Shown piece by piece: positions 3,326 through 21,592 of a stretch of DNA of 21,592 nucleotides; within the stretch, counting starts at the first letter, position 1, and each line of letters begins with the position of its first letter. This stretch comes from Chloroflexota bacterium (GTDB lineage Bacteria > Chloroflexota > Anaerolineae > Promineifilales > Promineifilaceae): assembly GCA_024223125.1 (NCBI GenBank), contig JAAEOP010000947.1, positions 1-21,592 on the forward strand, in the 5' to 3' direction. The notes beneath the pieces were generated by a model. The model made no database searches, was not told where the DNA came from, and saw nothing but the letters and a program-made list of their open reading frames with translations. A program made the translations under genes and the position numbers.

Positions 3326-6300
3326 CTATTCTGGTTTGACGGCCCGGTTAGCCGGCAACGGCCGTTCCACTTTCTTCACCGATTCACTTTCCAATTCCGC
3401 CAGCACAATTTCGACCGCTTTCTCCAGTTGGGGATCGCGTCCGGCCATCACCAGCTTGGGCGTCATTTCGATTTCCACATCGGGGGCGACCCCTTCATTT
3501 TCCACTTCCCATTCCCCATCGGGGCTGAAGATGGCTAATCGGGGCGCAGTAATCATGCCGCCGTCCATCAATACGGGATTGTCATAGATACCCACCAGCC
3601 CACCCCAGGTGCGTTTGCCCACCAGTTTACCCAAACCGCGCCGCCGGAAGAACAGCGGCATGGCATCGCCGCCAGAACCGGCATATTCGTTGATGATCAT
3701 TACTTTGGGGCCGAAGATGGAAGCGTTGGGCGTAGAAAAAATCTGGCCTTCGCGGGTGGCCCAATAACTGAGCAGCGGCCGATCCAACAAATCAATCACA
3801 TAATCGGCCACAGAACCGCCGCCGTTAAAGCGTTCATCCAGCACCACCGCTTCTTTGTTGAGCTGGGAGAAGTAGTAGCGGTTGAAGGAGGCGTACCCTT
3901 CCAGAGCGGTATTGGCCATGTAGACGTAGGCCACACGGCCGTTACTCATTTCGTCTACTTTTTGGCGGTTTTCTTCTACCCATGACCAGTGGCGCAATAT
4001 AGTTTCGCTGCTGAGGGGGATGACGGTGACGTTACGGCCGTCGGCCGGATCCGTCGTGGGGCTGATGAGCAGTTCTGTCTGCCGTTTGGCTGTTTTTTCA
4101 AAGAGACTGTAAAGATTGGTAGGGGCGCGGAGGGGACGGCCGTTGACTGCTAAAATATATTCTCCCTCGGCTACATTGACGCCCGGTTCAGTTAAAGGCG
4201 CTCGTAGTTCAGGATGCCAATTCAGGCCGGCGTAAATGCGTTGGATGCGATAATAGCCATCCACAATCTCATAATCCGCACCTAGCAGACCACCGGGTAC
4301 ATGGGCGGGCGTAGGTATATCGCCCAGTGCCACATAGGCATGGCCGACCGTTAATTCACCCAACAATTCGGCAAAGATAAAGTTCAAATCTTGACGATGG
4401 CCGACGTGGGCTAGAAACGGCCGATAACGTTCACACATCCCCTCCCAATCCACCCCGTGCATGTGGGCGTCGTAGAAAAAGTCGCGCTGAATACGGCCGG
4501 TTTCATTGTACATTTGCTCCCATTCCGCTTTGGGGTCTACATACGCTTCCATCTGGCGCAGGTTGAATTTGTCACGGCCGTTGTCCTTCTTTTTATCGGT
4601 CGCCATAATAGTGTATTCACCCCGTTTTTTGCCCTGGTAGAGCAGCTTCTTGCCATCGGCGCTAATCCAATAAGCCCGAATACCAGACAAGAAAACCTCG
4701 CTTTTCCGCTCTTTTAGGTCAAACGTATGCAGGGTAGACAAGGGCACATTATCTTGTTCCACATAGTCTCGCCATCCTTCCAGATAAAACAACTTATCTT
4801 CGGCCGTTTGCAAAGAGAGGTAGTTGCGGGCGGGCACAGGCAAAGGCACAATGCGCTGCGCCAATCCTTCCAGATCAATTTGTACTGTGACCGGTTCATC
4901 CTTTTTCTTCTTCTCGTTGTTGTTTCCGTTGTCCTCTTCGTCATTCTCTTTTTCTTTTTTGTCTGGTTCATCGTCGCTTTCAGGGGCCAGCGGTGAGGGA
5001 TCGTCTTTGTTGAGGACGGCGACGTAGAGGCTGCTTTGTATCGGCCGTTCGTAAGAAGACATATCCAGCCAACCCGTGTTTAAGCCAAAATTAGCACTGG
5101 CGGCAAAGAATAGATGCTTCCCATCGCGGCTAAAACAGGCGTAGGTGGCGTCGCTCAGACCATCGGTGATTTGATGTGTTTCGCCGCTGGCACAATCATA
5201 CAAAAACAGGGCGCGGATGTGGGTTTCCAGCCGTTTGGTGTAGGCAATCCATTGGCTGTCTGGCGACCAAACCGGGTTGAGGCTGCGTTCTGGATGGTCG
5301 TAAGTGTCGCTGCCAATATGAATTGACTCCCTGTCTTTTATGTCAATGTAGTAAAGGTTGAGGGCTTTATCGGTGTAGGCGATTTTTTGGCTGTCCGGCG
5401 ACCAGACGGGTGAATAGAAAAATGATTTTTTACCCAGGGGGATGAACGCTTTCTCTTTCAGTCCGGTCTGGTCAGACAAGACCAGTTCGTATTCTCCGTT
5501 GGCGTCTGAGAAGTAGGCGATGGCACGGCCGTTAGGCGACCAGGCCGGGTATCGTTCATGAGCGTCTGGGGTGCGGGTCAGGTTGCGGATGTCTCCTTTT
5601 TTCATGGGCACGGTAAAGATGTCGCCTCGCGCTTCAAAAACAGCCCGCACCCCAGTTGGTGAAATGCCAGCATTACGAATGTACCGGGCCGCTTTTTTGT
5701 AATGGGGACGTGTATGGGGCAAATCGGCGGCAATGTGAATGGGCAAGGGATGGCTTTCATTTTGCGCCGGATCGTAAATGTGGATGCGGCCGCCTTGCTC
5801 ATAAGCCAGTACGCCAGCTCCGGCCGTTAGGGAACGAATGTCAAAGTCATCATGATGGGTCAGTTGAGTCACTTCTTGGGTGTTGGTGTCATAGCTAAAC
5901 AGGTTCATCGTGCGCTGCCGGTCTGACAAGAAGTAGATGGTCTCATCCAGCCAGCAGGGGAAGGTGTCGCTGGCGTTAACATGGGGGATTTCGATGTGAT
6001 CAAAAGTCGCCAAATCCAACACCCAAATGGGCACGGTTTGGCCGCCGCGATACTGTTTCCAGGACCAGAATGGTTCGGGGATGGTCGTATAAGCAATATG
6101 GCTGCCATCTGGGGAATAGACGCCGCGTTCGGCCATGGGCATGGGAAGGGGCTGCGGAAAACCGCCAGCTAAGGAGACGGAATAAAGTCGCCGGTAACGC
6201 AGAGTAGGCGCATCCCGCGAGGTGGCGAATAAAATGTGTTGTCCGTCGGCCGTCCAGCCGCGCATCCAATCTTCACCGGGATGAAAAGTCAGCCGCTGCG

Positions 6301-6553
6301 GCGAGCCACCCTGAATGCTGATGACGTAGATGCTACTGTTGCCATCATAATTGCCAGAGAAGGCAATCCATTGACCGTCTGGCGAGAACATAGGGGTGGA
6401 TTTGAATCCTTTTTGGGCGGTCAGACGGTGAGGGTAACGGCCGTCGCGCTCGGCAAGCCAAATGTCGCTGGCATACAAAAAAGCGATGTGGTCGGCGCTG
6501 ACGGTGGGTTGTTTGAGCAGAAGTGTTTCTGGGTGAGGTTCTGGCTTTTTCAT
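3326..6553 (-). CDS. Tricorn protease homologue (peptidase S41B)
   Basis: A 1075-residue protein, full length for the tricorn family. The N-terminal half holds WD40-like/TolB-type beta-propeller repeats (FSPDGQWIAFSG, WSPNGRAIAYFS, WSPDSQWIAYT). A Lys/Glu/Asp-rich low-complexity linker follows at about residues 522-553. Next come the tricorn core, a PDZ-like segment (EGEYILAVNGRPL) and the tail-specific protease domain. Predicted catalytic residues are His738 (in GELTVGHAY), Ser960 (in NEYAGSGGD) and Glu1020 (in NEGVAPD), close to His746/Ser965/Glu1023 of the Thermoplasma enzyme as I recall it. No signal peptide is seen, so a cytoplasmic role in degrading oligopeptides left by larger proteases is likely. 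An AAGGA lies 12 bases before the ATG, which is long. It follows ruvA on the same strand after a hairpin repeat, so cotranscription is uncertain. Confidence 0.93.
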   Translation of the reverse strand: MKKPEPHPETLLLKQPTVSADHIAFLYASDIWLAERDGRYPHRLTAQKGFKSTPMFSPDGQWIAFSGNYDGNSSIYVISIQGGSPQRLTFHPGEDWMRGWTADGQHILFATSRDAPTLRYRRLYSVSLAGGFPQPLPMPMAERGVYSPDGSHIAYTTIPEPFWSWKQYRGGQTVPIWVLDLATFDHIEIPHVNASDTFPCWLDETIYFLSDRQRTMNLFSYDTNTQEVTQLTHHDDFDIRSLTAGAGVLAYEQGGRIHIYDPAQNESHPLPIHIAADLPHTRPHYKKAARYIRNAGISPTGVRAVFEARGDIFTVPMKKGDIRNLTRTPDAHERYPAWSPNGRAIAYFSDANGEYELVLSDQTGLKEKAFIPLGKKSFFYSPVWSPDSQKIAYTDKALNLYYIDIKDRESIHIGSDTYDHPERSLNPVWSPDSQWIAYTKRLETHIRALFLYDCASGETHQITDGLSDATYACFSRDGKHLFFAASANFGLNTGWLDMSSYERPIQSSLYVAVLNKDDPSPLAPESDDEPDKKEKENDEEDNGNNNEKKKKDEPVTVQIDLEGLAQRIVPLPVPARNYLSLQTAEDKLFYLEGWRDYVEQDNVPLSTLHTFDLKERKSEVFLSGIRAYWISADGKKLLYQGKKRGEYTIMATDKKKDNGRDKFNLRQMEAYVDPKAEWEQMYNETGRIQRDFFYDAHMHGVDWEGMCERYRPFLAHVGHRQDLNFIFAELLGELTVGHAYVALGDIPTPAHVPGGLLGADYEIVDGYYRIQRIYAGLNWHPELRAPLTEPGVNVAEGEYILAVNGRPLRAPTNLYSLFEKTAKRQTELLISPTTDPADGRNVTVIPLSSETILRHWSWVEENRQKVDEMSNGRVAYVYMANTALEGYASFNRYYFSQLNKEAVVLDERFNGGGSVADYVIDLLDRPLLSYWATREGQIFSTPNASIFGPKVMIINEYAGSGGDAMPLFFRRRGLGKLVGKRTWGGLVGIYDNPVLMDGGMITAPRLAIFSPDGEWEVENEGVAPDVEIEMTPKLVMAGRDPQLEKAVEIVLAELESESVKKVERPLPANRAVKPE

Positions 6554-7241: not shown

Positions 7242-7294
7242 GAGATTGGGGATTAGAGATTGGAGATTAGCGAGAGAATCTCCAATCTCTAATC
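7242..7294. repeat. GAGATTGG-family hairpin repeat between ruvC and ruvA
   Basis: Arms 7251-7268 and 7277-7294 are perfect 18-bp complements with an 8-base loop. The 27 bases 7242-7268 are identical to 19699-19725, which lie inside a coding sequence. The element fills nearly the whole ruvC-ruvA gap. Confidence 0.85.
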
Positions 7295-10728: not shown

Positions 10729-13722
10729 CTAAAATAATGAAACCTCAGCCAAAAATGCGTCGGCATCGGCACGGGCTTGCGACTGGGTCCAAAAACGTTG
10801 TTCACTAGGCCGCACCAACGACATTTGCTCGCCATCATAGACACGGACATGCTGCCGCATGTACATTGAAGGCGCTTTTTGTTCTAATAAGAGCTTATCC
10901 AATTCGTACAGTTTGGCGTGCATCGCATCTGATTGGGTGACAACTTGCGTTGGCTGCGCTTCATCTAAGTCAACCAAATCAAAACTTACGACTGTCAAAG
11001 GTGCGCGATTTTTATAAACAATAGCATTCAACGTTTTATTTTTAAGGTGAAACAGAGATGTGGCTGTACGTGAAAACACATCTGCATAGGCTGTCAACAT
11101 AGGCACATCAGGATTTCTAACCGCTCTTATGCCGTTAGGTTTTCGTGTTTTCTTTTTTGCCCACTCAAAAAATGCCATCCCGTAATTCAACATATCATCT
11201 ACCAACTGTTGTTCAACAGGATGAAGTCTATACAATTCGTATACTAATTTATTGATGATTGTTTCATACTCTTGCTGACGATGATTATCCTGCAATAAAA
11301 ACAGATCATCCTCATTTGATGATGTCTTCATCTGTTCAAGATAGTGTAAAATTTCTTGAAGCCGCTCATCATCCTCATGTGGAATCAGAAAAGGCATATC
11401 TTTATACTCTTTATGGAGCGGATTACGTCGTTCCACAGCCCAGCGTGTTGATGTCAAAAATTGATAGTATTTAGTAAGCGGTGAATTAATCAGACAAACC
11501 AGCCATTTAAGAATCGGTTCCTGGCCCTTTTTCCCGTTTATTCCAGAGAAACTAGCTAAATACGAGATATCCGTATCAACAAAAGCCGCCTGACAATTTG
11601 ATTGATGAATAAGAACGAGAGGGCCTTTGTACCTTTCCTTTTCCCCAACTAAGTAAAGGAATCTCTCTTTTGTTGGGCTAAGATTGTCGGTAGAAACAAA
11701 ATATGGCTCAAATTGAGTAGTAGGTAAAAAAGGCACGTCTTTCAAGTGGTCAGGAGTTGGTTTTCTTTTTTGATTTCTGCTTTCGTCCTTACTTTTTCCA
11801 ACTTGGAATCCTTCTCTTGGCTCAGACCAATTTAATAACTGTGACTGTTCCGATAAGGTAGTGATGTCATTTAACCGCTCAATCAAAGCGGCATCGCGGG
11901 GAGTACCCCATTGAGCGATTTTCCAGAGGTGGGGGAAATCAAGGAGGTGTTGGTGGTCTAAAAATTTGATGTCGGTAGTGTCTAGCACAATTGCTTTGAG
12001 ATGTTGCGATAATGGAGATGGTTTGGGAACGCCATAAACGAGTTTTTGGGTAAAATCGGGTTCGTTCGGGGTATAGAAAACGGCCGCTGCCGGACTAATC
12101 GCTTTCGGAAACAACTCATAAACAATCGCTGCAAAATTAACAACAGCCCGCACATGGTAAGTGCGGAAGAATTGGTCACGGAATGTTTTATGGGTATCAC
12201 TGGTGACTAAAATTGTGCTTTTAACCGGCGATAAAAGGGCAATTTCGCCTGTTTCGCTGCAAAATCCAGGTACACGCAGCATAAAGGCAGGTGCGGCTTG
12301 TTTGCCGCCCACCGTATAATTATGCTCTTTAAGCCATTGTTGAGCAGGGGATGTCAATGTACCTTTCCCCCACGGCATATTACCCACGATACGATCAAAG
12401 CGGCGTTGGGCAAATTGAGCGTCAATCTCTGCGGTAAAAAAATCAGCGCCCAATAAATTTTGCGACTGTAAAGGGGGAAAGCGGAAAGAATCCTCCCGCA
12501 CCTGCTCATTCGTCAAATGGTTGAGGATTTCCAGGTAAAGACTAAATGCAGCAATGCGTACTGCTTCTTCGTTTTTGTCAACGCCATAAATATTTTGGCG
12601 CAGAATTTGGATAAGAGCCGTGGCATTTAGCTGCCCATTTTGTCGCGCCCATGCCTGAATTAAACGACGGTATGCGCCGACCAAAAAGATGCCGGAGCCA
12701 CAGGCAGGGTCTAATACGGCCATATCAGGCTGAATAACCTCATCTCCCATTGTCTCTTCCAGCATAAAATCTACAAGGGGCAGGGGGGTGTAATAAGCGC
12801 TGGCGGAGCGCTGTTCGCTTTCGCCAATGAAAGCGTCGTAAATGTGGCTGATCAATTCGATGGGAATGTATTCAAAGTTGTACGGCCAAAAACTTAGCTG
12901 TCCTGTTTTCAGGTCAGTTTGATTTAGAAAGTCCAGCAAAATTTTGAGATGGTGATCTTCGACATCTTTTTCTGCATCTTCCACGGGAAATAAATCGCCA
13001 TTGAAGCGGTTGCTTAATTGCTCATATAGCACGTATGTAGTGGAACGGCCGTTACCCAACGCCTCACGATAACTATTTGCCTCCCCTTGCGTCATTTGTT
13101 GTATCCATTCCATATCCAAAATGCCGCGATCTTCAAGGTAGCAAATGAAAATGGAGCGACCTAGCAGTGTATACGCCAAATGGTTTGTCAACCCGTTGTT
13201 TGTTAAAAACTGACGCACCTGTTTCATACTGGCGACCAATTTACGATCGGCCCGTGCTTGATAATCTATTTTACGGGCTTCTGACGAATCCCAAAAAGCG
13301 CCCGTCTCTAAATAAATTCGGTGGTAGTAGGCATCAATCAGTTCTTGTCTGATTTTTTGCTGAGCGGATAAGTGATCAGCTAATTCTGTTAAATGCTGTA
13401 ATAGTTTGGGTTCTTTATCAGGGCCAGGAGGAGCATCGTAGCCGCTGTAAACACGAATTTCATGAGGCAAGGTCACAAAAAGCAGCGGCGCTTTGCTTTG
13501 GCTCCACACATTTTTGTGCAGTTGTCTGATTTCATCTAAATCTAGTTCGCTAAAACGGCTGAAATAGGCAAGGGGCTGATGTTCGAGGAATAATGCGGCC
13601 TGGATATGAGGAATAGGACGGCCGTTCGGCCAGGGAATAGCTTCAGCTTCTGTAAGAAGTCCTGGTGTTCCAGCATAGCCAAGTTCTTCAAATAATAATT
13701 GCTCTAATTTGCTGGCTACCAC
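10729..13722 (-). CDS. Large N6-adenine DNA methyltransferase (Eco57I/type IIG-like)
   Basis: The frame opens at a TTG at 13752, but AAAGGAGG ends 6 bases before an in-frame GTG at 13722, which I take as the start (997 residues). The N-terminal ~300 residues are helical with a typical IFICYLEDRGIL segment. The methylase core has SAYYTP, SAM-binding motif I DPACGSGIF (about 338-346) and a catalytic motif IV that reads NMPW at about 448-451 instead of NPPY/W. The C-terminal half resembles the target recognition part of type IIG enzymes (PLVLIHQ, NSPLTKYYQF). The N-terminal nuclease-like region shows no clear ExK, so cutting may depend on the next gene. Codon use is more A/T-rich than in the neighbours and ACGGCCGT is rare here, which hints at transfer. 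Confidence 0.88.
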   Translation of the reverse strand: MVASKLEQLLFEELGYAGTPGLLTEAEAIPWPNGRPIPHIQAALFLEHQPLAYFSRFSELDLDEIRQLHKNVWSQSKAPLLFVTLPHEIRVYSGYDAPPGPDKEPKLLQHLTELADHLSAQQKIRQELIDAYYHRIYLETGAFWDSSEARKIDYQARADRKLVASMKQVRQFLTNNGLTNHLAYTLLGRSIFICYLEDRGILDMEWIQQMTQGEANSYREALGNGRSTTYVLYEQLSNRFNGDLFPVEDAEKDVEDHHLKILLDFLNQTDLKTGQLSFWPYNFEYIPIELISHIYDAFIGESEQRSASAYYTPLPLVDFMLEETMGDEVIQPDMAVLDPACGSGIFLVGAYRRLIQAWARQNGQLNATALIQILRQNIYGVDKNEEAVRIAAFSLYLEILNHLTNEQVREDSFRFPPLQSQNLLGADFFTAEIDAQFAQRRFDRIVGNMPWGKGTLTSPAQQWLKEHNYTVGGKQAAPAFMLRVPGFCSETGEIALLSPVKSTILVTSDTHKTFRDQFFRTYHVRAVVNFAAIVYELFPKAISPAAAVFYTPNEPDFTQKLVYGVPKPSPLSQHLKAIVLDTTDIKFLDHQHLLDFPHLWKIAQWGTPRDAALIERLNDITTLSEQSQLLNWSEPREGFQVGKSKDESRNQKRKPTPDHLKDVPFLPTTQFEPYFVSTDNLSPTKERFLYLVGEKERYKGPLVLIHQSNCQAAFVDTDISYLASFSGINGKKGQEPILKWLVCLINSPLTKYYQFLTSTRWAVERRNPLHKEYKDMPFLIPHEDDERLQEILHYLEQMKTSSNEDDLFLLQDNHRQQEYETIINKLVYELYRLHPVEQQLVDDMLNYGMAFFEWAKKKTRKPNGIRAVRNPDVPMLTAYADVFSRTATSLFHLKNKTLNAIVYKNRAPLTVVSFDLVDLDEAQPTQVVTQSDAMHAKLYELDKLLLEQKAPSMYMRQHVRVYDGEQMSLVRPSEQRFWTQSQARADADAFLAEVSLF

Positions 13723-13784
13723 CTGTTTCCTCCTTTTGGGGAAGTCTGACAATTACACAACTACTTCACATAAGATCATCATTG

Positions 13785-15220: not shown

Positions 15221-15304
15221 GAATCACGAATCACGAATCACGAATCACGGATTACGGATTACGGATTACGGATTACGGATTACGGATTACGGATTACGGA
15301 TTAC
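15221..15304 (+). repeat. Tandem heptamer array, 4 x GAATCAC + 8 x GGATTAC
   Basis: Twelve perfect heptamers lie head to tail: four GAATCAC then eight GGATTAC, 84 bases. The two units differ at two positions, and the switch is clean. The array lies between the divergent GH1 gene and the V4R gene. Single and partial copies of the same unit recur inside the coding region near 18795-18830. Confidence 0.95.
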
Positions 15305-15321
15305 GAGCTTAACACGCTGTT

Positions 15322-15465: not shown

Positions 15466-16101
15466 GTGAAAGATTTAGTACCCCAAAGTGGTTACTATTA
15501 CCCCAACAAAATGGGCCGTATACTCCTTGTTTCTATGGAAGAAGTGATGGGGCGGAACGGATTAAATGCCTTGTTGAATTTAATTGACCTGCGCGAATTT
15601 CAACAGGAGTTGCCTCCCGATAATTTGGAAAGAGAATTTGATTTTGCCAATATTAGCAATCTAAGCAAAGCTCTGCGTGAAATCTATGGGCTGCGAGGCG
15701 GCCGAGGGTTAGCTTTACGAGGTGGACGGGCAATTTTTTCCAAAGGATTACGCCATTTTGGCGCCCTGGCGGGTGTTAGCGATTTAGCCTTTAAGGTATT
15801 ACCTCTTAAAACCAAACTCAAAATAGGTGTTCCGGCCGTGGCCCGCATCTTTTCCCAATTTAGTGATCAGGGCAGTCATGTTGGGGAGAAAGATGATCAT
15901 TTCTTATATACTATTGATCGTTGTTCAGAATGTTGGCAGCAAACCTCAGATCGGCCGATATGTTATATTGCCGTGGGTATTTTGCAGGAGACATTGCGCT
16001 GGGTGAGCGGCGGGCTGGAATTTCGAGTGGACCAGGTGGCTTGCAAAGCGATGGGGGATGAGGCCTGTGTTTTCAAAATTGACAAAGACCCGATTAAGTA
16101 A
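15466..16101 (+). CDS. V4R-domain protein, putative small-molecule sensor
   Basis: A 211-residue protein starting with GTG at 15466, supported by GGAGG at 15455-15459. The C-terminal third fits the V4R (4-vinyl reductase) domain: ICYIAVGILQETLRWVSGG, then VACKAMGDEACVFKI with the final Gly-Asp-x-x-Cys-x-Phe signature. Cysteines 153, 156, 166, 193 and 201 could bind a metal or sense a ligand. The N-terminal ~140 residues (PNKMGRILLVSMEEVMGRNGLNALL...) form an alpha-rich region seen with V4R proteins. V4R domains occur in bacteriochlorophyll-related proteins and as ligand-sensing parts of regulators. Here the domain is stand-alone, followed 173 bases later by a response regulator on the same strand, so a signalling role is the best guess. 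Confidence 0.8.
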   Translation: MKDLVPQSGYYYPNKMGRILLVSMEEVMGRNGLNALLNLIDLREFQQELPPDNLEREFDFANISNLSKALREIYGLRGGRGLALRGGRAIFSKGLRHFGALAGVSDLAFKVLPLKTKLKIGVPAVARIFSQFSDQGSHVGEKDDHFLYTIDRCSECWQQTSDRPICYIAVGILQETLRWVSGGLEFRVDQVACKAMGDEACVFKIDKDPIK

Positions 16102-16168
16102 AATTAACTTCATAAATATTAGACCATACATCATTTAGCTATTAATGTTAACTTAAGCGTAGACTTCG

Positions 16169-16191
16169 CAGGTTTAAGTATTGGAAACCTG
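16169..16191. repeat. Small inverted repeat upstream of the response regulator
   Basis: CAGGTTT (16169-16175) and AAACCTG (16185-16191) pair around a 9-base loop. The preceding AGACTTCG is the kind of flank seen in palindromic repeats, but only a partial element is present. It may end V4R transcription weakly or be a relic. Confidence 0.45.
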
Positions 16192-16274
16192 TGATGCATT
16201 TAACATCTATGATCGTTTAACAAATTCCAGGTACAATGATGATTGTTATTTATGAATCATCAAGGAAGAAACAT

Positions 16275-17144
16275 GTGAGTGACGAAAAAAAAGGACAGCA
16301 TAAGATATTTATCGTTGAAGATGACCTCGATTTATCAGAAATGTTGAGTGCCTACTTCCGCGTACAAGGATATGATGTATCTACGGCATCACGCGGGGAA
16401 GACGCCATTAATGAAATTAGCAATAATATTCCTGATGTCGCTGTTTTAGATATTCGCTTGCCTGATATTGACGGCTATGAGGTCTGTCGCCGATTACGGC
16501 ACGCTCGGCGCACACAAAATTTGCCGGTTATCTTTTTAACGGAAAAGCGAGATCGGGATGATAAATTGGCCGGTTTGGAACTGGGCGCGATAGATTACAT
16601 TACCAAACCGTTTGATATTCAAGAATTGCGGCTGCGTATTCGCAATGCGCTGCGCCGGGCACAGTTGAGTACGCTGCAAAATCCGGTTACGGGTTTACCG
16701 GAAGGTATTCTGGTGCGGGAGCGTTTAGACCAGATGTTGAAGCAGCCGGAATGGGGTGTGGTGTCGGCCGGTATTCGTGGGTTAGGCAAGTTTCGGGATA
16801 AGTTTGGGTTTGTGGCCGCAGATGATGTGTCGCGGGCGGTAACGTTGATGATTACGAACGCGGTGCAGGAAAGTGGATCGGGTGAAGATTTTGTTGGTCA
16901 TACGGATACAGGCGACTTTGTCATTATTACGTCGGCCGCTAGAAGTAATAAGCTGGCAGAAAGATGTCTGGTGCGCTTGCAGCCTTCGATTCAATATTTT
17001 TATCCAGCGTTGGATCGACAGCGGCTGCATGAATTGCCGGAATCTGATAGATTGACGGTGCGGGTTTCTGCAATTTCGGACAAGGATGAACCTATCAATT
17101 CGTTGGAATCGCTGTTTGAAGCGTTGGAAAATCGTCGGTTATAA
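16275..17144 (+). CDS. Response regulator with degenerate GGDEF-like domain
   Basis: The frame is open from an ATG at 16236, but AAGGAAG at 16262-16268 places the start at the GTG at 16275 (289 residues). The receiver domain (residues ~10-125) has the acidic pocket Glu15/Asp16/Asp17, phosphoacceptor Asp59 (VLDIRLPDIDGYE), Thr89 and Lys111 (TKPFD), all intact. The second half begins NPVTGLPEG, the usual first motif of GGDEF domains, and contains a GKFRDKFGFVAADDV helix. The catalytic GGDEF loop is replaced by HTDTGDF (209-215), so cyclic-di-GMP synthesis is unlikely. It may be a phosphorylation-controlled binding module. No histidine kinase is in the window. Confidence 0.88.
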   Translation: MSDEKKGQHKIFIVEDDLDLSEMLSAYFRVQGYDVSTASRGEDAINEISNNIPDVAVLDIRLPDIDGYEVCRRLRHARRTQNLPVIFLTEKRDRDDKLAGLELGAIDYITKPFDIQELRLRIRNALRRAQLSTLQNPVTGLPEGILVRERLDQMLKQPEWGVVSAGIRGLGKFRDKFGFVAADDVSRAVTLMITNAVQESGSGEDFVGHTDTGDFVIITSAARSNKLAERCLVRLQPSIQYFYPALDRQRLHELPESDRLTVRVSAISDKDEPINSLESLFEALENRRL

Positions 17145-17270: not shown

Positions 17271-20200
17271 ATGAAGCGGTTTTTGCGGTTTAGAATAGAT
17301 TTTTTTGTTGTACTTGGTTTTTTTGTTTTGCCACTGTTGTTGTTTGGGAATGTAACATTAGGTGGCAAGACGATGCTGCCGATAGATAATTTGTTTCAAT
17401 GGGCGCCATGGACGGCTGCGGCCAACCAATTCTACATCACCACTTCCCACAACCCCCTCATTACAGATCTGATTATTGAGAATTACGTCTGGAAGCAGTT
17501 TATTCGAGAAAATATCACCACGCCAACGCAGCTTTTGTGGAATCCGTATTTGTTTGGCGGAGTTCCGTTTTTGGCGGCCGGGCAGCATGGAGCGTATTAC
17601 CCGTTTAGTGTGCTGTTTCTCATCCTGCCCTTGAGCAAGGCATATGGCTGGTACGCGGTTAGCCAGTTGTGGCTGGCGGGGGTGTTGATGTATGTGTACG
17701 GTCGTGTTCTGGGACTCAGACGTAGTTCGGCCGCGTTGGCCGCGTTGGTGTATCAGGGGGGCGGGTTTATTGTGGTTAGCGCGGCCGTGTTTCCTATGGT
17801 CATCGGGGCAGTGGCTTGGCTACCATTGCTATTGGCTTGTGTTGATAAGGTGATTGGCAGTTCTGTGAATTGGGCTAAAACAACATGGTTGTGGGTGGTT
17901 GTGGGATCTGTCGCATTAGGTACGCAAATTTTTGCCGGGCACATTGAATTTACTATTTACACGCTGCTGGTGGTGGCGGTGTATGGTGTGTGGCGGGTGG
18001 GGCAAGTGGCAAGTGGCAAGTATGCAAGTAGAACTGATTACCGATCACTGATTACTGAACACTGTTTACGGCCGTTCCTCTGGCTCACGGGTATGGTTTT
18101 GCTGGGTCTGATGATCGGGGCGGTACAGTTGGTTCCTTTGTTTGAATTGGGGCAGGCGAACTTTCGGGAAGCGTCGGCCAGTTTTGCTGAGGTGCAAAGT
18201 TATGCCTTTCCTAAACGACGGCTGGCGACGTTGGCGATGCCCAACTTTTTTGGCAATCCGGCACATCAGGCTGTGGTGGATGTGTTGAGCGGTGTGACGG
18301 CGCCGGTCAGGCAGAATTATTATGGGCAGCCAGTAGTTACGACGGAGTGGGGGATTAAGAATTATGTGGAGGGCGGCATTTATTTGGGCATTTTGCCTTT
18401 GTTTTTGGCGCTATTGGGGGTGTATGGGGGGCTGCGGTTTGGGGACGAGACAGACGGGGATGGGGGATCCTTGTTTGGCAAGGGTTCTGCCCGCCTGTCT
18501 CGCCCCTACAACGGTCGTCGGGGGATAACGGTTTTTTATTTGTTGCTGTCGTTGTTTTCGTTGGCGTTTATTTTTGGGACGCCATTGTATGCTTTGTTGT
18601 ATTATGGGCTGCCGTTTGTGAACCAGTTGCATACACCGTTTCGTTGGGTGTTTCCGTTGTCGTTGGCGGTGGCTGTGTTGGCTGGGTTTGGGGTAGATTA
18701 CCTTTCAGCAACTAGAAAATGGCAGACGGTGAGGAAGTGGCAATCGGGGAGTAGCAAGTATGCAAGTGGCAAGTGGCAAGTTGCAAGTAGGACGGAAAAC
18801 GGATTACGGATTGCGGATTACGGGTTACGGCCGTTATTCTTGTGGAGCAAACCATCCTTCATTACCGGGTTAGCTGGAGTTGCTTTGTGGAGCGGGGCGC
18901 TGTTGCTGATGGGGTTGTTTGCTTCACGGCCGTTGTACCCACAAATTGAACCATTGGTGGAACGGATTTTTCTGGGGATGGCGTTGGCGGCCGATGTGTT
19001 CCCCGATGCGCGTACATTTTACAGCTATGAATACCGACAGTTGTTTTTGTTGAGCTTGATGTTGGTGGGTACGGGAGCTACGCTGCGCGTTAGTCGCTGT
19101 CCTATTTTTGTTGGGCGTTGGGGTGGCCGTAGACCCATCTGGCTGTTCATGGCTGCTGGGTTGATTGTGCTGGATATATGGGCGGCCAACAGAGGTTTTC
19201 ATGCGGCCAATGATCCGACGCTGCTGGCGTACAAGCCAGAATTGGCGCTATGGTTGGAAGCACAGCCTGGTTTGTGGCGGCTGACCAGCTTTACACCGCA
19301 GGGAGACACGCCGTTTCATGCCAATTCTGGCTGGCTGTTCAATTTGCCTGATGTACGTGGCTATGACTCCATCATTCCCAAACAATATACGCAATATTTG
19401 GGCGCAATTGAACCCCAGGGGGAACTGCCCTTTAACCGCATTCAACCGTTCAAAATGTGGCAGTCGCTCAACTCACCGCTGTTGGATGTGCTGGGGGTAA
19501 AATATGTGATTACGTCGGAAACGATTGAGTTGCCTAAATATGAATTGACCTGGGAAGGGGAAGGGGTGCGGGTGTATGAGAATCTGGGAGTTGCACCGCG
19601 GGCTTATACGCTGCCGGTGTCGCAAACGGCCGTGATGCCTGATCCTCTCACAGCTATGACTGAATATGATCCCCGCAGTTTTGTGGTGATAGGGGAGGGA
19701 GATTGGGGATTAGAGATTGGAGATTCGACAAGTACGCCCAATCTCCAATCCTTCGGTTTCGCTCAGGACAAGCCTCCAACCTCCAATCTCCAACCGGCCG
19801 ACATCATCGCCAACAGCAACATCGAAGTAATTGTACAAACGGCCGTATCCGAACCATCCTGGCTCATTTTGAATGACAGTTACTTCCCCGGCTGGAAGGT
19901 GTTTGTGAAGCCAGTTGGCACGGGGGAGGAGACTGAACGGCAAACAGAGATTACACGGGTCAATGGAAATTTTCGGGGCGTGCAGTTGGAACCGGGCGCC
20001 TGGGAAGTGCGTTTTCGTTACAGTCCCCTCACGTTTCAATTGGGTGGCTTGGCAAGTGCAATGGCGATGGTGATTTTGGTTTTTGGTACGGCCGTGTGGG
20101 GCTGGCGTATCTTCTACAAACCCACAGGTAACGTCTCTAAAATCCACAGCATTGCTAAAAACAGTCTGGCCCCGATGGCCCTTAATTTGTTCAACAAATT

Positions 20201-21592
20201 TATAGATTTTGTCTTTGCTATGTTTTATTTGCGTGTGCTGGGGCCGGCAGGAGCGGGCAGCTTTCAGACGGCCATTGTGACGGCCGGTATTTTTGACATT
20301 GTAGCGAACTATGGTCTGGACATCCTTTTCATCCGTGATGTGTCGCATGACCATAATAAAACATCCAACTATTTGTTCAACACCACCATTTTACGAATCG
20401 GTATCGCCTTTTTTGCCGCCTTGCCCGTTTTTGTTCTTATCTTTGTGACCAACCGCCTGCCAGATAGCAATCCGCTAACGTCGGCCGAAATTGTGGCTAC
20501 GATTTTGATTATGGTAGGCATGGTTTTTTCGGGTATGAGCAAAGGGGTGACGGGCTTGTTTTATGTGCATGAAGAGGCAGAAACCCCGGCGGCAATGACC
20601 ACAGCCACCACCATCATGAAAGTGGGGTTTGGGGTGATGGTGTTATTGGCCGGATATAGTTTTGTGGGCTTAGCGGCCGTTTCCATCCTCACTAATCTTC
20701 TCACCCTTGTTGTTCTCGTTGTTTTGGCGCTGCGAAAGTATGATTTACCTGGCCCCTGGAAGCTGGATATTGGTTTGCAGCAACGGATGCTGAACATGGG
20801 TTTTCCGCTCATGCTCATTCATTTGCTGCAAACGATCTTTATCTCTATTGACACCTATTTGCTGCGGGTGATGCTGCCCAATGGTCAGGAGGTAGCCGGT
20901 TGGTACAGCAGCGCGTATAAATGGTTCAATGCCCTGCAAATCATCCCTTCGTTCTTTACGCTGGCATTGTTCCCCATCATCACTCGTGAAATTAAGGATT
21001 CGCTGGAATCGGCACGAAGGATGTATGGGATGGCGATTAAGATTATGTATTTGTTAGCGCTGCCAGTAGCGGCCGTAACCTGGTATCTGGCGTATCCACT
21101 AGTGCGACTTGTGGGCGGGCCGGAATTTTTGCCGCATGGGGCTATTGCGCTGCAAATTGTCATCTGGTCTATTCCTATTGGCTGGATGAATAGTGTAACG
21201 AACTATGTTCTCATCAGCCTGGGATTAGAACGGATGCAGCCGCGAGCATTTACGGCCGGGGTGCTGTTCAACATCGTCACCAATCTCTTGTTTATTCCCC
21301 TGTTTACCTATGTGGCGGCGGGAGTGACAACTATTTTGTCTGAGGTCGTACTGCTGCTGGTGTTTGAATATTATTTGCGACGACGGATGCCGGGGGTGCG
21401 TTGGGGTGGCTTTTTGTGGAAGCCAGGGTTGGTAACGGCCGTGACTGTCACAGCTATGTATCTGGGCGGACAAATTCATCTGCTGGTAGGATTATTTGGC
21501 ATTTTACTTTATCCGGCCGGGCTGCTGGCGTTGCGGGTAGTGGGACCAGATGAACGCAAAATTCTGGCGGATATTCTGCCTGCGTCCATTGC
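17271..21592 (+). CDS. Fused YfhO-like membrane glycosyltransferase and Wzx/MVF-type flippase (3' end outside window)
   Basis: I read this frame codon by codon from the ATG at 17271 to the window end: more than 1440 codons with no stop. Residues 1 to about 950 form a YfhO-like (GT-C type) membrane protein: PIDNLFQWAPW (37-47), a conserved WNPYLFGGVPF (90-100), about a dozen hydrophobic segments, then an extracytoplasmic region with LILNDSYFPGW and a last membrane segment (ASAMAMVILVFGTAVWGW). A short linker (RIFYKPTGN) leads into a polysaccharide flippase beginning near residue 955 (IAKNSLAPMALNLFNKFIDFVF, YLRVLGPAGAGSFQTA). YfhO proteins glycosylate surface polymers or lipids from lipid-linked sugars; flippases move lipid-linked sugars across the membrane. 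One chain could couple the two steps. No Shine-Dalgarno sequence is visible before 17271, and none before possible flippase starts. Four repeat-derived stretches lie in frame within the YfhO part. Confidence 0.85.
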   Translation, partial: MKRFLRFRIDFFVVLGFFVLPLLLFGNVTLGGKTMLPIDNLFQWAPWTAAANQFYITTSHNPLITDLIIENYVWKQFIRENITTPTQLLWNPYLFGGVPFLAAGQHGAYYPFSVLFLILPLSKAYGWYAVSQLWLAGVLMYVYGRVLGLRRSSAALAALVYQGGGFIVVSAAVFPMVIGAVAWLPLLLACVDKVIGSSVNWAKTTWLWVVVGSVALGTQIFAGHIEFTIYTLLVVAVYGVWRVGQVASGKYASRTDYRSLITEHCLRPFLWLTGMVLLGLMIGAVQLVPLFELGQANFREASASFAEVQSYAFPKRRLATLAMPNFFGNPAHQAVVDVLSGVTAPVRQNYYGQPVVTTEWGIKNYVEGGIYLGILPLFLALLGVYGGLRFGDETDGDGGSLFGKGSARLSRPYNGRRGITVFYLLLSLFSLAFIFGTPLYALLYYGLPFVNQLHTPFRWVFPLSLAVAVLAGFGVDYLSATRKWQTVRKWQSGSSKYASGKWQVASRTENGLRIADYGLRPLFLWSKPSFITGLAGVALWSGALLLMGLFASRPLYPQIEPLVERIFLGMALAADVFPDARTFYSYEYRQLFLLSLMLVGTGATLRVSRCPIFVGRWGGRRPIWLFMAAGLIVLDIWAANRGFHAANDPTLLAYKPELALWLEAQPGLWRLTSFTPQGDTPFHANSGWLFNLPDVRGYDSIIPKQYTQYLGAIEPQGELPFNRIQPFKMWQSLNSPLLDVLGVKYVITSETIELPKYELTWEGEGVRVYENLGVAPRAYTLPVSQTAVMPDPLTAMTEYDPRSFVVIGEGDWGLEIGDSTSTPNLQSFGFAQDKPPTSNLQPADIIANSNIEVIVQTAVSEPSWLILNDSYFPGWKVFVKPVGTGEETERQTEITRVNGNFRGVQLEPGAWEVRFRYSPLTFQLGGLASAMAMVILVFGTAVWGWRIFYKPTGNVSKIHSIAKNSLAPMALNLFNKFIDFVFAMFYLRVLGPAGAGSFQTAIVTAGIFDIVANYGLDILFIRDVSHDHNKTSNYLFNTTILRIGIAFFAALPVFVLIFVTNRLPDSNPLTSAEIVATILIMVGMVFSGMSKGVTGLFYVHEEAETPAAMTTATTIMKVGFGVMVLLAGYSFVGLAAVSILTNLLTLVVLVVLALRKYDLPGPWKLDIGLQQRMLNMGFPLMLIHLLQTIFISIDTYLLRVMLPNGQEVAGWYSSAYKWFNALQIIPSFFTLALFPIITREIKDSLESARRMYGMAIKIMYLLALPVAAVTWYLAYPLVRLVGGPEFLPHGAIALQIVIWSIPIGWMNSVTNYVLISLGLERMQPRAFTAGVLFNIVTNLLFIPLFTYVAAGVTTILSEVVLLLVFEYYLRRRMPGVRWGGFLWKPGLVTAVTVTAMYLGGQIHLLVGLFGILLYPAGLLALRVVGPDERKILADILPASI
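18003..18062 (+). repeat. In-frame repeat segment 1: GCAAGTGGCAAGT and GATTACTGA-type units
   Basis: About 60 bases inside the YfhO part (residues ~245-264). The sequence repeats CAAGTGGCAAGTATGCAAGTA and then GATTACCGATCACTGATTACTGAA. The same CAAGTGGCAA unit occurs at 18754-18790 and upstream of the gene near 17198-17215. Translated, it gives a hydrophilic stretch after a membrane segment (VWRVGQVASGKYAS), probably a loop. Confidence 0.7.
18438..18522 (+). repeat. In-frame repeat segment 2: imperfect inverted repeat
   Basis: GGGGACGAGACAGACGGG at the left and the near-complement CCCGCCTGTCTCGCCCC at the right bracket about 35 bases with TTTGGCAAGGGTTCTGC. The region encodes residues ~390-418, a Gly/Asp/Arg-rich insert between two membrane segments, and reads like an intergenic palindromic element captured in frame. 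Confidence 0.6.
18738..18830 (+). repeat. In-frame repeat segment 3: CAAGTGGCAA and GGATTAC units
   Basis: About 90 bases encoding residues ~490-521. It combines GCAAGTATGCAAGTGGCAAG with GGATTACGGATTGCGGATTA, the latter built of the heptamer unit at 15249-15304. The protein shows the matching repeat NGLRIADYGLRP. Confidence 0.75.
19699..19793 (+). repeat. In-frame repeat segment 4: GAGATTGG-family element
   Basis: Bases 19699-19725 are identical over 27 bases to 7242-7268 in the ruvC-ruvA gap. The right part carries complementary AATCTCCAATC units (19739-19750 and 19783-19790), with a TCCTTCGGTTTCGCTCAGGA block between them. It encodes residues ~809-842 (GDWGLEIGD ... TSNLQP) and keeps the frame. 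Confidence 0.85.

What the first reader, a model, noticed from the sequence alone, without database searches (positions are those of the whole stretch)
17271..21592. YfhO-like glycosyltransferase fused to a Wzx/MVF flippase in one reading frame
Seen: more than 1440 codons without a stop, with a YfhO-like half ending in a normal last membrane segment and then, after about ten linker residues, a normal flippase N-terminus. No ribosome site appears near the junction (20100-20180). Known: these families normally come from separate, often adjacent genes. Inferred: a single chain could hand a lipid-linked sugar from flipping to transfer. A sequencing error that removed a stop is the main alternative.
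Basis: partly seen in the sequence, partly recalled or inferred. Interest (0 to 1): 0.7.

Follow-up and report, generated by a model that had tools for sequence, protein, structure and literature searches.

The report
Glycosyltransferase and sugar-lipid flippase in one
In a class of poorly studied bacteria (Anaerolineae), an enzyme that attaches sugars outside the cell membrane and a pump that flips sugar-carrying lipids across it are predicted to be made as one long protein with a nearly fixed joint, so the fusion is real and old rather than a sequencing error, although what it does has not been tested.

The parts
17271..20114 (+). YfhO-family GT-C glycosyltransferase half, residues 1-948 (14 membrane helices by my reading of the model)
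17385..17387 (+). Asp39, first acidic residue of external loop 1
   Evidence: D in 25 and E in 7 of 32 aligned fused proteins
17466..17468 (+). Asp66, candidate catalytic acid in external loop 1
   Evidence: D in 32 of 32; 90% or more of 77 rows; catalytic role inferred from GT-C precedent
19593..20027 (+). External beta-sandwich, residues 775-919, weakly resembling carbohydrate-binding parts of glycoside hydrolases
20028..20114 (+). Last helix of the GT-C half (TM14), residues 920-948, returning the chain to the cytoplasm
   Evidence: model helix 920-948; positive-inside pattern
20115..20138 (+). Linker, residues 949-956
   Evidence: Between conserved W945 and N964 there are 16-20 residues in 31 of 32 fused proteins and 30 in one
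20139..21590 (+). MOP-superfamily (Wzx/MurJ-type) flippase half, residues 957-1440, cut about 7 codons before its end by the contig edge
15466..16101 (+). V4R-domain protein gene, upstream neighbour in the close group only
   Evidence: PF02830 41.9 bits; relatives in the flanks of 17 of 40 neighbourhoods, the window counted and L025 left out
16236..17144 (+). Response-regulator-domain protein gene, upstream neighbour in the close group only
   Evidence: in the same 17 of 40 neighbourhoods

Best explanation
It is a natural, old, single-chain fusion of an outward-facing GT-C glycosyltransferase (YfhO family) and a MOP-type flippase. Shown here: one frame, the two predicted folds, a conserved and nearly fixed joint, a topology that fits, and common descent. 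Inferred: a cytoplasmic GT-A synthase (DPM1/CsbB type) charges a polyprenyl phosphate with a sugar; the flippase half turns it to the outer face; the GT-C half, using Asp39/Asp66 in external loop 1, passes the sugar to an external acceptor (cell-surface polymer, lipid or protein). This would be the GacK (flippase) and GacL (GT-C) steps joined in one protein, giving 1:1 stoichiometry and closeness and perhaps direct hand-off. How likely: natural fusion about 0.98; GT-C plus flippase activities about 0.8; same substrate passing between them about 0.55.
For: Fusion: 37 of 40 loci, 120 of 120 listed long homologues through the junction, 83 of the 90 matching genomes (of 98) of one family with the flippase in a frame of 1000 aa or more (my count), 41 of the 48 matching genomes (of 52) of another with one match through the junction (my count). 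Folds. Linker 16-20 residues in 31 of 32. Topology: net positive loops inside, neutral or negative outside, for 14 helices, ending inside. The halves evolve together: distance correlation 0.951 over 496 pairs, 0 of 1000 permutations as high. Flippase tree without short entries and with L071 set aside: 47 fused rows on one side of one branch and 23 stand-alone on the other, 99/94, in all of 200 bootstrap trees. A DPM1-like GT2 gene (best solved match dolichol monophosphate mannose synthase 5mlz, E 6.9e-33) adjoins the fused gene in L038 and in its near relative L029 and lies 4.3 kb upstream in L016; a relative (best 48-100% identity) is in 13 of 14 such genomes. Precedent for a Wzx-type flippase with a GT-C transferase: GacK/GacL, WpsG/WpsJ (PMC8035078 and PMC10821137 passages); for AglR as or beside a DolP-mannose flippase: PMC3871713 passages.
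Against: No activity data. GtrA-type flippases, the usual ones for polyprenyl-P-sugars, are also in 13 of 14 of these genomes, so the donor could be flipped without this protein. In Listeria the Wzx homologue tested was not needed for LTA glycosylation and GtcA was (PMC7389260 passages). The DPM1-like gene is near in only 3 of 40 neighbourhoods, two of them nearly the same lineage; no control was run on genomes without the fusion, and such synthases are common. Neighbourhoods are otherwise not conserved outside the close group. In the reduced relatives (8 proteins) much of the GT-C half is gone and D39, H224 and E226 are replaced, so this form of glycosyl transfer seems not to be needed in that lineage. 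pTM 0.75 for residues 241-1440 does not establish a domain contact; no PAE was available and the N-terminal 240 residues were missing. Nearest neighbours agree between the two halves in only 21 of 32 proteins.
Confidence: 0.55

Rival explanations
1. Sequencing or assembly error, or a one-off accident, joined two neighbouring genes.
For: Single contig, gene cut by its end. One related genome (G514) has a frame change inside the YfhO half near residues 801-850, and L039 has a break inside its YfhO half, so errors or decay do occur in this gene.
Against: Same joint in 37 of 40 loci, in 120 of 120 listed long homologues and in two families of genomes; purifying selection on both sides.
Confidence: 0.01
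2. En-bloc transfer: the flippase half flips a lipid-linked oligosaccharide (Wzx role) and the GT-C half works as a ligase or oligosaccharyltransferase, like WpsG with WpsJ or PglK with PglB (the latter recalled).
Against: The B. subtilis and Listeria YfhO enzymes are assigned to C55-P-monosaccharide donors (PMC5836110 and PMC8035078 passages); no glycan gene cluster recognised around the gene in the flanks examined; a DPM1-like gene adjoins it in one lineage.
Confidence: 0.25
3. The two halves serve one pathway but different molecules: GtrA supplies the donor sugar-lipid, and the flippase half brings out the lipid-linked acceptor that the GT-C half decorates. The fusion fixes location only.
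For: GtrA in 13 of 14 genomes (the control rang in 7 of 14 well-known genomes); both halves keep their own conserved residues.
Against: GtrA is a broad family and the hits were not shown to serve this protein; no acceptor pathway recognised next to the gene.
Confidence: 0.14
4. The GT-C half is mainly a non-catalytic partner that regulates or feeds the flippase.
For: A reduced family (8 proteins, 834-977 aa, one matching the G295 protein) keeps the flippase, the last helix and part of the GT-C half but lacks most of residues 290-843 and replaces D39, H224 and E226 in 8 of 8.
Against: In the full-length family loop-1 acids and H224, E226, R299, R316, K363, E367, R458 are kept in 32 of 32, with dN/dS near 0.12. 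An acid remains in the D66 column in 7 of 8 reduced proteins.
Confidence: 0.05

Closest known systems
GacK (Wzx-type flippase) and GacL (GT-C) of Streptococcus pyogenes; WpsG/WpsJ of lactococci
   Same: Same two protein kinds proposed to work in sequence (passages)
   Different: Separate genes there, one chain here; substrate here unknown; GT-C half is of YfhO type (GacL is listed as PMT-2)
CsbB-GtcA-YfhO LTA glycosylation system of Bacillus subtilis
   Same: YfhO-family GT-C with a large external domain before the last helix (PMC5836110 passages)
   Different: Flippase there is the small GtrA-family GtcA and a separate gene; no MOP flippase
MurJ and WzxE flippases
   Different: Those solved proteins stand alone; 11-16% identity to the aligned MurJ and WzxE chains
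AglR of Haloferax volcanii
   Same: Proposed to serve as or assist a DolP-mannose flippase (PMC3871713 passages); its MOP membership is recalled, not tested
   Different: Separate gene, archaeal
MprF
   Same: One chain holding a lipid-modifying enzyme and a flippase (search listing with starts of abstracts)
   Different: Unrelated folds (recalled), aminoacyl phospholipids, enzyme half modifies inner-leaflet lipid

Membership tests
Pfam PF09586 YfhO | Profile match over the gathering score | tested here: met
   39.2 bits vs 28.5 for residues 1-945 alone; not listed for the whole chain at E<=1e-3
GT-C glycosyltransferases | GT-C fold of the membrane half | tested here: met
GT-C glycosyltransferases | Acidic residues in external loop 1 | tested here: met
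   D/E39 and D66 in 32 of 32; no residue-level superposition was made
GT-C glycosyltransferases | Sugar transfer from a lipid donor | not testable with these tools
   needs biochemistry
MOP flippases (Wzx/MurJ) | PF01943 and MOP fold | tested here: met
MOP flippases (Wzx/MurJ) | Flipping of a lipid-linked sugar | not testable with these tools
   needs biochemistry; the same fold also holds drug transporters (MATE rows)
NCBIfam Wzx_EPS (NF041871) | Score over the curated cut-off | tested here: not met
   29.7 bits vs 800
Multi-component transmembrane glycosylation system | GT-A synthase, flippase and GT-C acting together | tested here: inconclusive
   DPM1-like GT2 in 13 of 14 genomes but near the fused gene in 3 of 40 neighbourhoods; action not tested
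GacK/GacL-type pair | Flippase and GT-C as separate genes | tested here: not met
   One frame here and in 37 of 40 loci

The most novel reading that the evidence does not exclude
A single-chain membrane machine that flips a polyprenyl-linked sugar and at once transfers it, with the joint held to 16-20 residues because the flippase exit must face the GT-C active site; kept as a usual, perhaps core, gene in families of Anaerolineae, with a second lineage in which the GT-C half was pared down to a partner of the flippase.
Probability: 0.4. Interest if true: 0.75.

Novelty: new variant of a known kind. Interest (0 to 1): 0.55.

Why it matters
Which flippase serves which external glycosyltransferase, and whether lipid-linked sugars are handed over directly, is largely inferred from genetics. 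A natural fusion conserved over much of a bacterial class names the pair, fixes the stoichiometry, and offers one protein for reconstitution or cryo-EM of flipping coupled to transfer. It also points to an undescribed surface-glycan step in Anaerolineae, whose envelopes are poorly known (my own knowledge). Where a source gives a name, it is after the flippase half or 'hypothetical protein', so the glycosyltransferase half is easily missed, although precomputed domains list YfhO for some of them.

Tried and rejected
Sequencing error or lost stop: rejected. Two genes with translational coupling: no frame break or ribosome-site motif at the joint. Split relatives: 15 of 114 shorter homologues begin at query residues 926-970. 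Six short entries were put in the tree (four from this class, plus P0207 and P0208, which begin inside the YfhO half) and all six nest among fused proteins, so they look truncated or re-split. Their DNA was not found (best match to P0226 72% and fused). Seven flippase frames under 1000 aa run into contig ends: five frames are open at their 5' end (two of these five, G434 and G476, are too short to reach the joint) and two start at contig base 1-5. In one search, 7 of 48 matching genomes gave only pieces not crossing the joint: five touch contig ends (G508 and G524 checked; G539, G540, G548 by coordinates), G530 and G538 are unresolved. Two fused frames flagged with a stop (G269, G018) have it after the flippase, not at the joint.

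Stand-alone flippases of other Chloroflexota as half of an adjacent YfhO-flippase pair: 20 regions fetched; 9 neighbours scanned: leucyl aminopeptidase in 4, glycosyltransferases in 3, one radical SAM protein, one without a match; no YfhO-like frame adjoins in the listing, and L051 has one about 5 kb away. For L052 and L070 my listing hid the flippase frame, so their neighbours were not judged; neighbours of the remaining regions were not identified by Pfam.

A first tree with six short entries gave the fused branch only 93/95, and its label test counted those entries as a third group; the tree without them and without one duplicate gave 99/94. In both, L071 lies outside on a long branch.

A conserved pathway operon: not found in flanks of up to 6 kb. 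GtrA absence as support for this flippase: failed, GtrA is in 13 of 14. Literature: no paper describing this fusion seen in searches (13 of 13 listed; 20 of 41; 20 of 35; 10 of 1171, none of the ten with YfhO; 4 of 4); I saw listings there, and passages by term of PMC8035078, PMC5836110, PMC7389260, PMC10821137, PMC3871713 and PMC4973528. The library is partial. Phyla other than Chloroflexota were covered only by the peptide-pattern scan, which reaches close relatives; all 40 record titles there name Chloroflexota groups.

Full report
OBSERVATION. The frame 17271-21590 on the + strand is open for 1440 codons and leaves the window without a stop. The database copy of the protein comes from a 21592-base contig, so the gene is cut by the contig end; in L001 the frame ends about 7 residues later. 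Residues 1-945 match PF09586 YfhO when scanned alone (39.2 bits, cut-off 28.5) but not within the full chain at E<=1e-3. Residues 962-1239 match PF01943 (81.3 bits, cut-off 28.2). No in-frame start codon at 20061-20235 has a GGAG, GAGG or AGGA motif within 22 bases upstream.

THE JOINT IS REAL AND OLD. A scan of the species genomes (one for each of 84,980 species) gave 40 loci, all titled as Chloroflexota groups. In 37 of 40 one open frame holds both halves, some cut by contig ends; in 3 (L013, L034, L037) the contig ends before the flippase; in L039 (one of the 37) the YfhO half itself is broken into two frames but its last part is joined to the flippase. All 120 long homologues listed (one of them the window's own) align through the junction in one piece, 102 of 120 over nearly the whole chain (615 were found, 120 listed). 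That search admits only proteins of 0.55-1.75 times the query length, so a second search with the flippase half alone looked for short relatives: of the 114 further proteins listed, 52 start inside the YfhO half, 47 inside the flippase and 15 near the joint. Many lie on short contigs, and the six that I placed in a tree nest among fused ones. In a family of 98 genomes 90 match and 83 of those 90 have the flippase in a frame of 1000 aa or more; the other seven run into contig ends. In the family of G001, 48 of 52 match and 41 of those 48 show one match through the junction; of the other seven, five touch contig ends and two are unresolved. In 400 genomes across the phylum, 43 show a match running through the joint by my count of the listing (two flagged with a stop, which lies after the flippase), and many others show only stand-alone flippases or YfhO proteins.

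GEOMETRY. Between the conserved W945 and N964 there are 16-20 residues in 31 of 32 fused proteins and 30 in one. The GT-C half was modelled with pLDDT 90.4 and pTM 0.92. Its helices, divided by me and read with loop charges averaged over 32 proteins, give 14 membrane passes with positive loops inside and neutral or negative loops outside, so the chain re-enters the cytoplasm after helix 920-948. MOP flippases begin in the cytoplasm (established knowledge), so the fusion needs no topological change. The model of residues 241-1440 has pLDDT 87.0 and pTM 0.75; no PAE was available, so a domain contact is not claimed.

ORIGIN. In a first tree of 78 flippase domains, 48 of 49 fused rows plus six short entries lie on one branch (93/95) with none of the 23 stand-alone rows. 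Rebuilt without the short entries and one duplicate, and with L071 in no group, 47 fused rows are split from 23 stand-alone rows by one branch, 99/94, in all of 200 bootstrap trees. The exception, L071 from genome G295, is an 896-residue frame whose GT-C half is about 400 residues. Eight such proteins of 834-977 aa were listed in the database, one of them (P0236) 100% identical to the L071 query. All eight lack most of residues 290-843 and replace D39, H224 and E226; an acid stands in the D66 column in 7 of 8. They keep the last part of the external sheet, the last helix, linker and flippase. Whether this is one fusion later pared down or a second fusion is open, because L071 is a long branch. 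Stand-alone flippases of other Chloroflexota sit beside leucyl aminopeptidase genes (4 of the 9 neighbours scanned) or glycosyltransferases (3 of 9); no YfhO-like frame adjoined one in the listing.

MECHANISM. In Gram-positive bacteria a GT-A enzyme makes a C55-P-sugar, a flippase turns it out and a GT-C enzyme transfers it; the flippase is usually thought to be GtrA-type but Wzx-type in Streptococcus pyogenes (GacK with GacL) (PMC8035078 passages; PMC10821137 passages). In Haloferax AglR is proposed to serve as or assist the DolP-mannose flippase (PMC3871713 passages). The present protein is best read as the last two steps in one chain. The synthase step is supported by a DPM1-like GT2 gene (5mlz, E 6.9e-33) directly upstream in L038 and its near relative L029 and 4.3 kb upstream in L016, and by a relative in 13 of 14 fused-gene genomes (no control on genomes without the fusion). 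Against: 37 of the 40 neighbourhoods examined (39 loci, L025 left out, and the window; flanks of at most 6 kb in the loci) lack it, GtrA is in 13 of 14 genomes (the control rang in 7 of 14 well-known genomes), and in Listeria a Wzx homologue was dispensable for LTA glycosylation (PMC7389260 passages). En-bloc oligosaccharide transfer and separate donor/acceptor flipping remain open.

NOVELTY. The sequences are in public databases; where one search gives a source's name it is after the flippase half or 'hypothetical protein'. No paper describing the fusion appeared in the listings of searches of the held library, which is partial. MprF shows that enzyme-flippase fusions exist (search listing with starts of abstracts). 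I call this a new variant of a known kind: known parts and a known division of labour, but one conserved chain.

Noticed in passing
18005-18075, 18735-18835, 19690-19800 (and 18440-18525): Short repeat-like stretches are read in frame inside the YfhO half. They vary in length among close relatives, and some fall in the stretches of lowest model confidence. Parts match each other or intergenic DNA of the window, for example a heptamer array at 15247-15305 and 27 identical bases at 7242-7268; the stretch 18440-18525 recurs in L002 and L012. By my topology three fall in cytoplasmic loops and one in the external sheet.
   Followed up: partly
L071 3894-6584; P0236-P0243: A reduced family of about 830-980 aa: first helices of the GT-C half, the end of the external sheet and last helix, joined to the flippase, with most of residues 290-843 absent and D39, H224, E226 replaced. 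A candidate pseudo-glycosyltransferase fused to a flippase.
   Followed up: partly
L012 10322-12496 and 7 other loci: Within 1 kb downstream of the fused gene in 8 of 40 neighbourhoods lies a 661-724 aa frame of one family; the one scanned has a weak PMT_2 match (PF13231, 30.2 bits), so perhaps another GT-C protein.
   Followed up: no
15466-17144: V4R-domain protein and response-regulator-domain protein genes stand upstream of the fused gene in the close group (17 of 40 neighbourhoods, the window counted), perhaps controlling it.
   Followed up: no
10729-13752 (-): 1007-aa protein with N6_Mtase, Eco57I and MmeI methylase matches: looks like a single-chain restriction-modification enzyme.
   Followed up: no
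3326-6553 (-): Tricorn-like protease with PD40, Tricorn_C1, PDZ and S41 domains next to ruvA/ruvC and a YebC-family gene.
   Followed up: no
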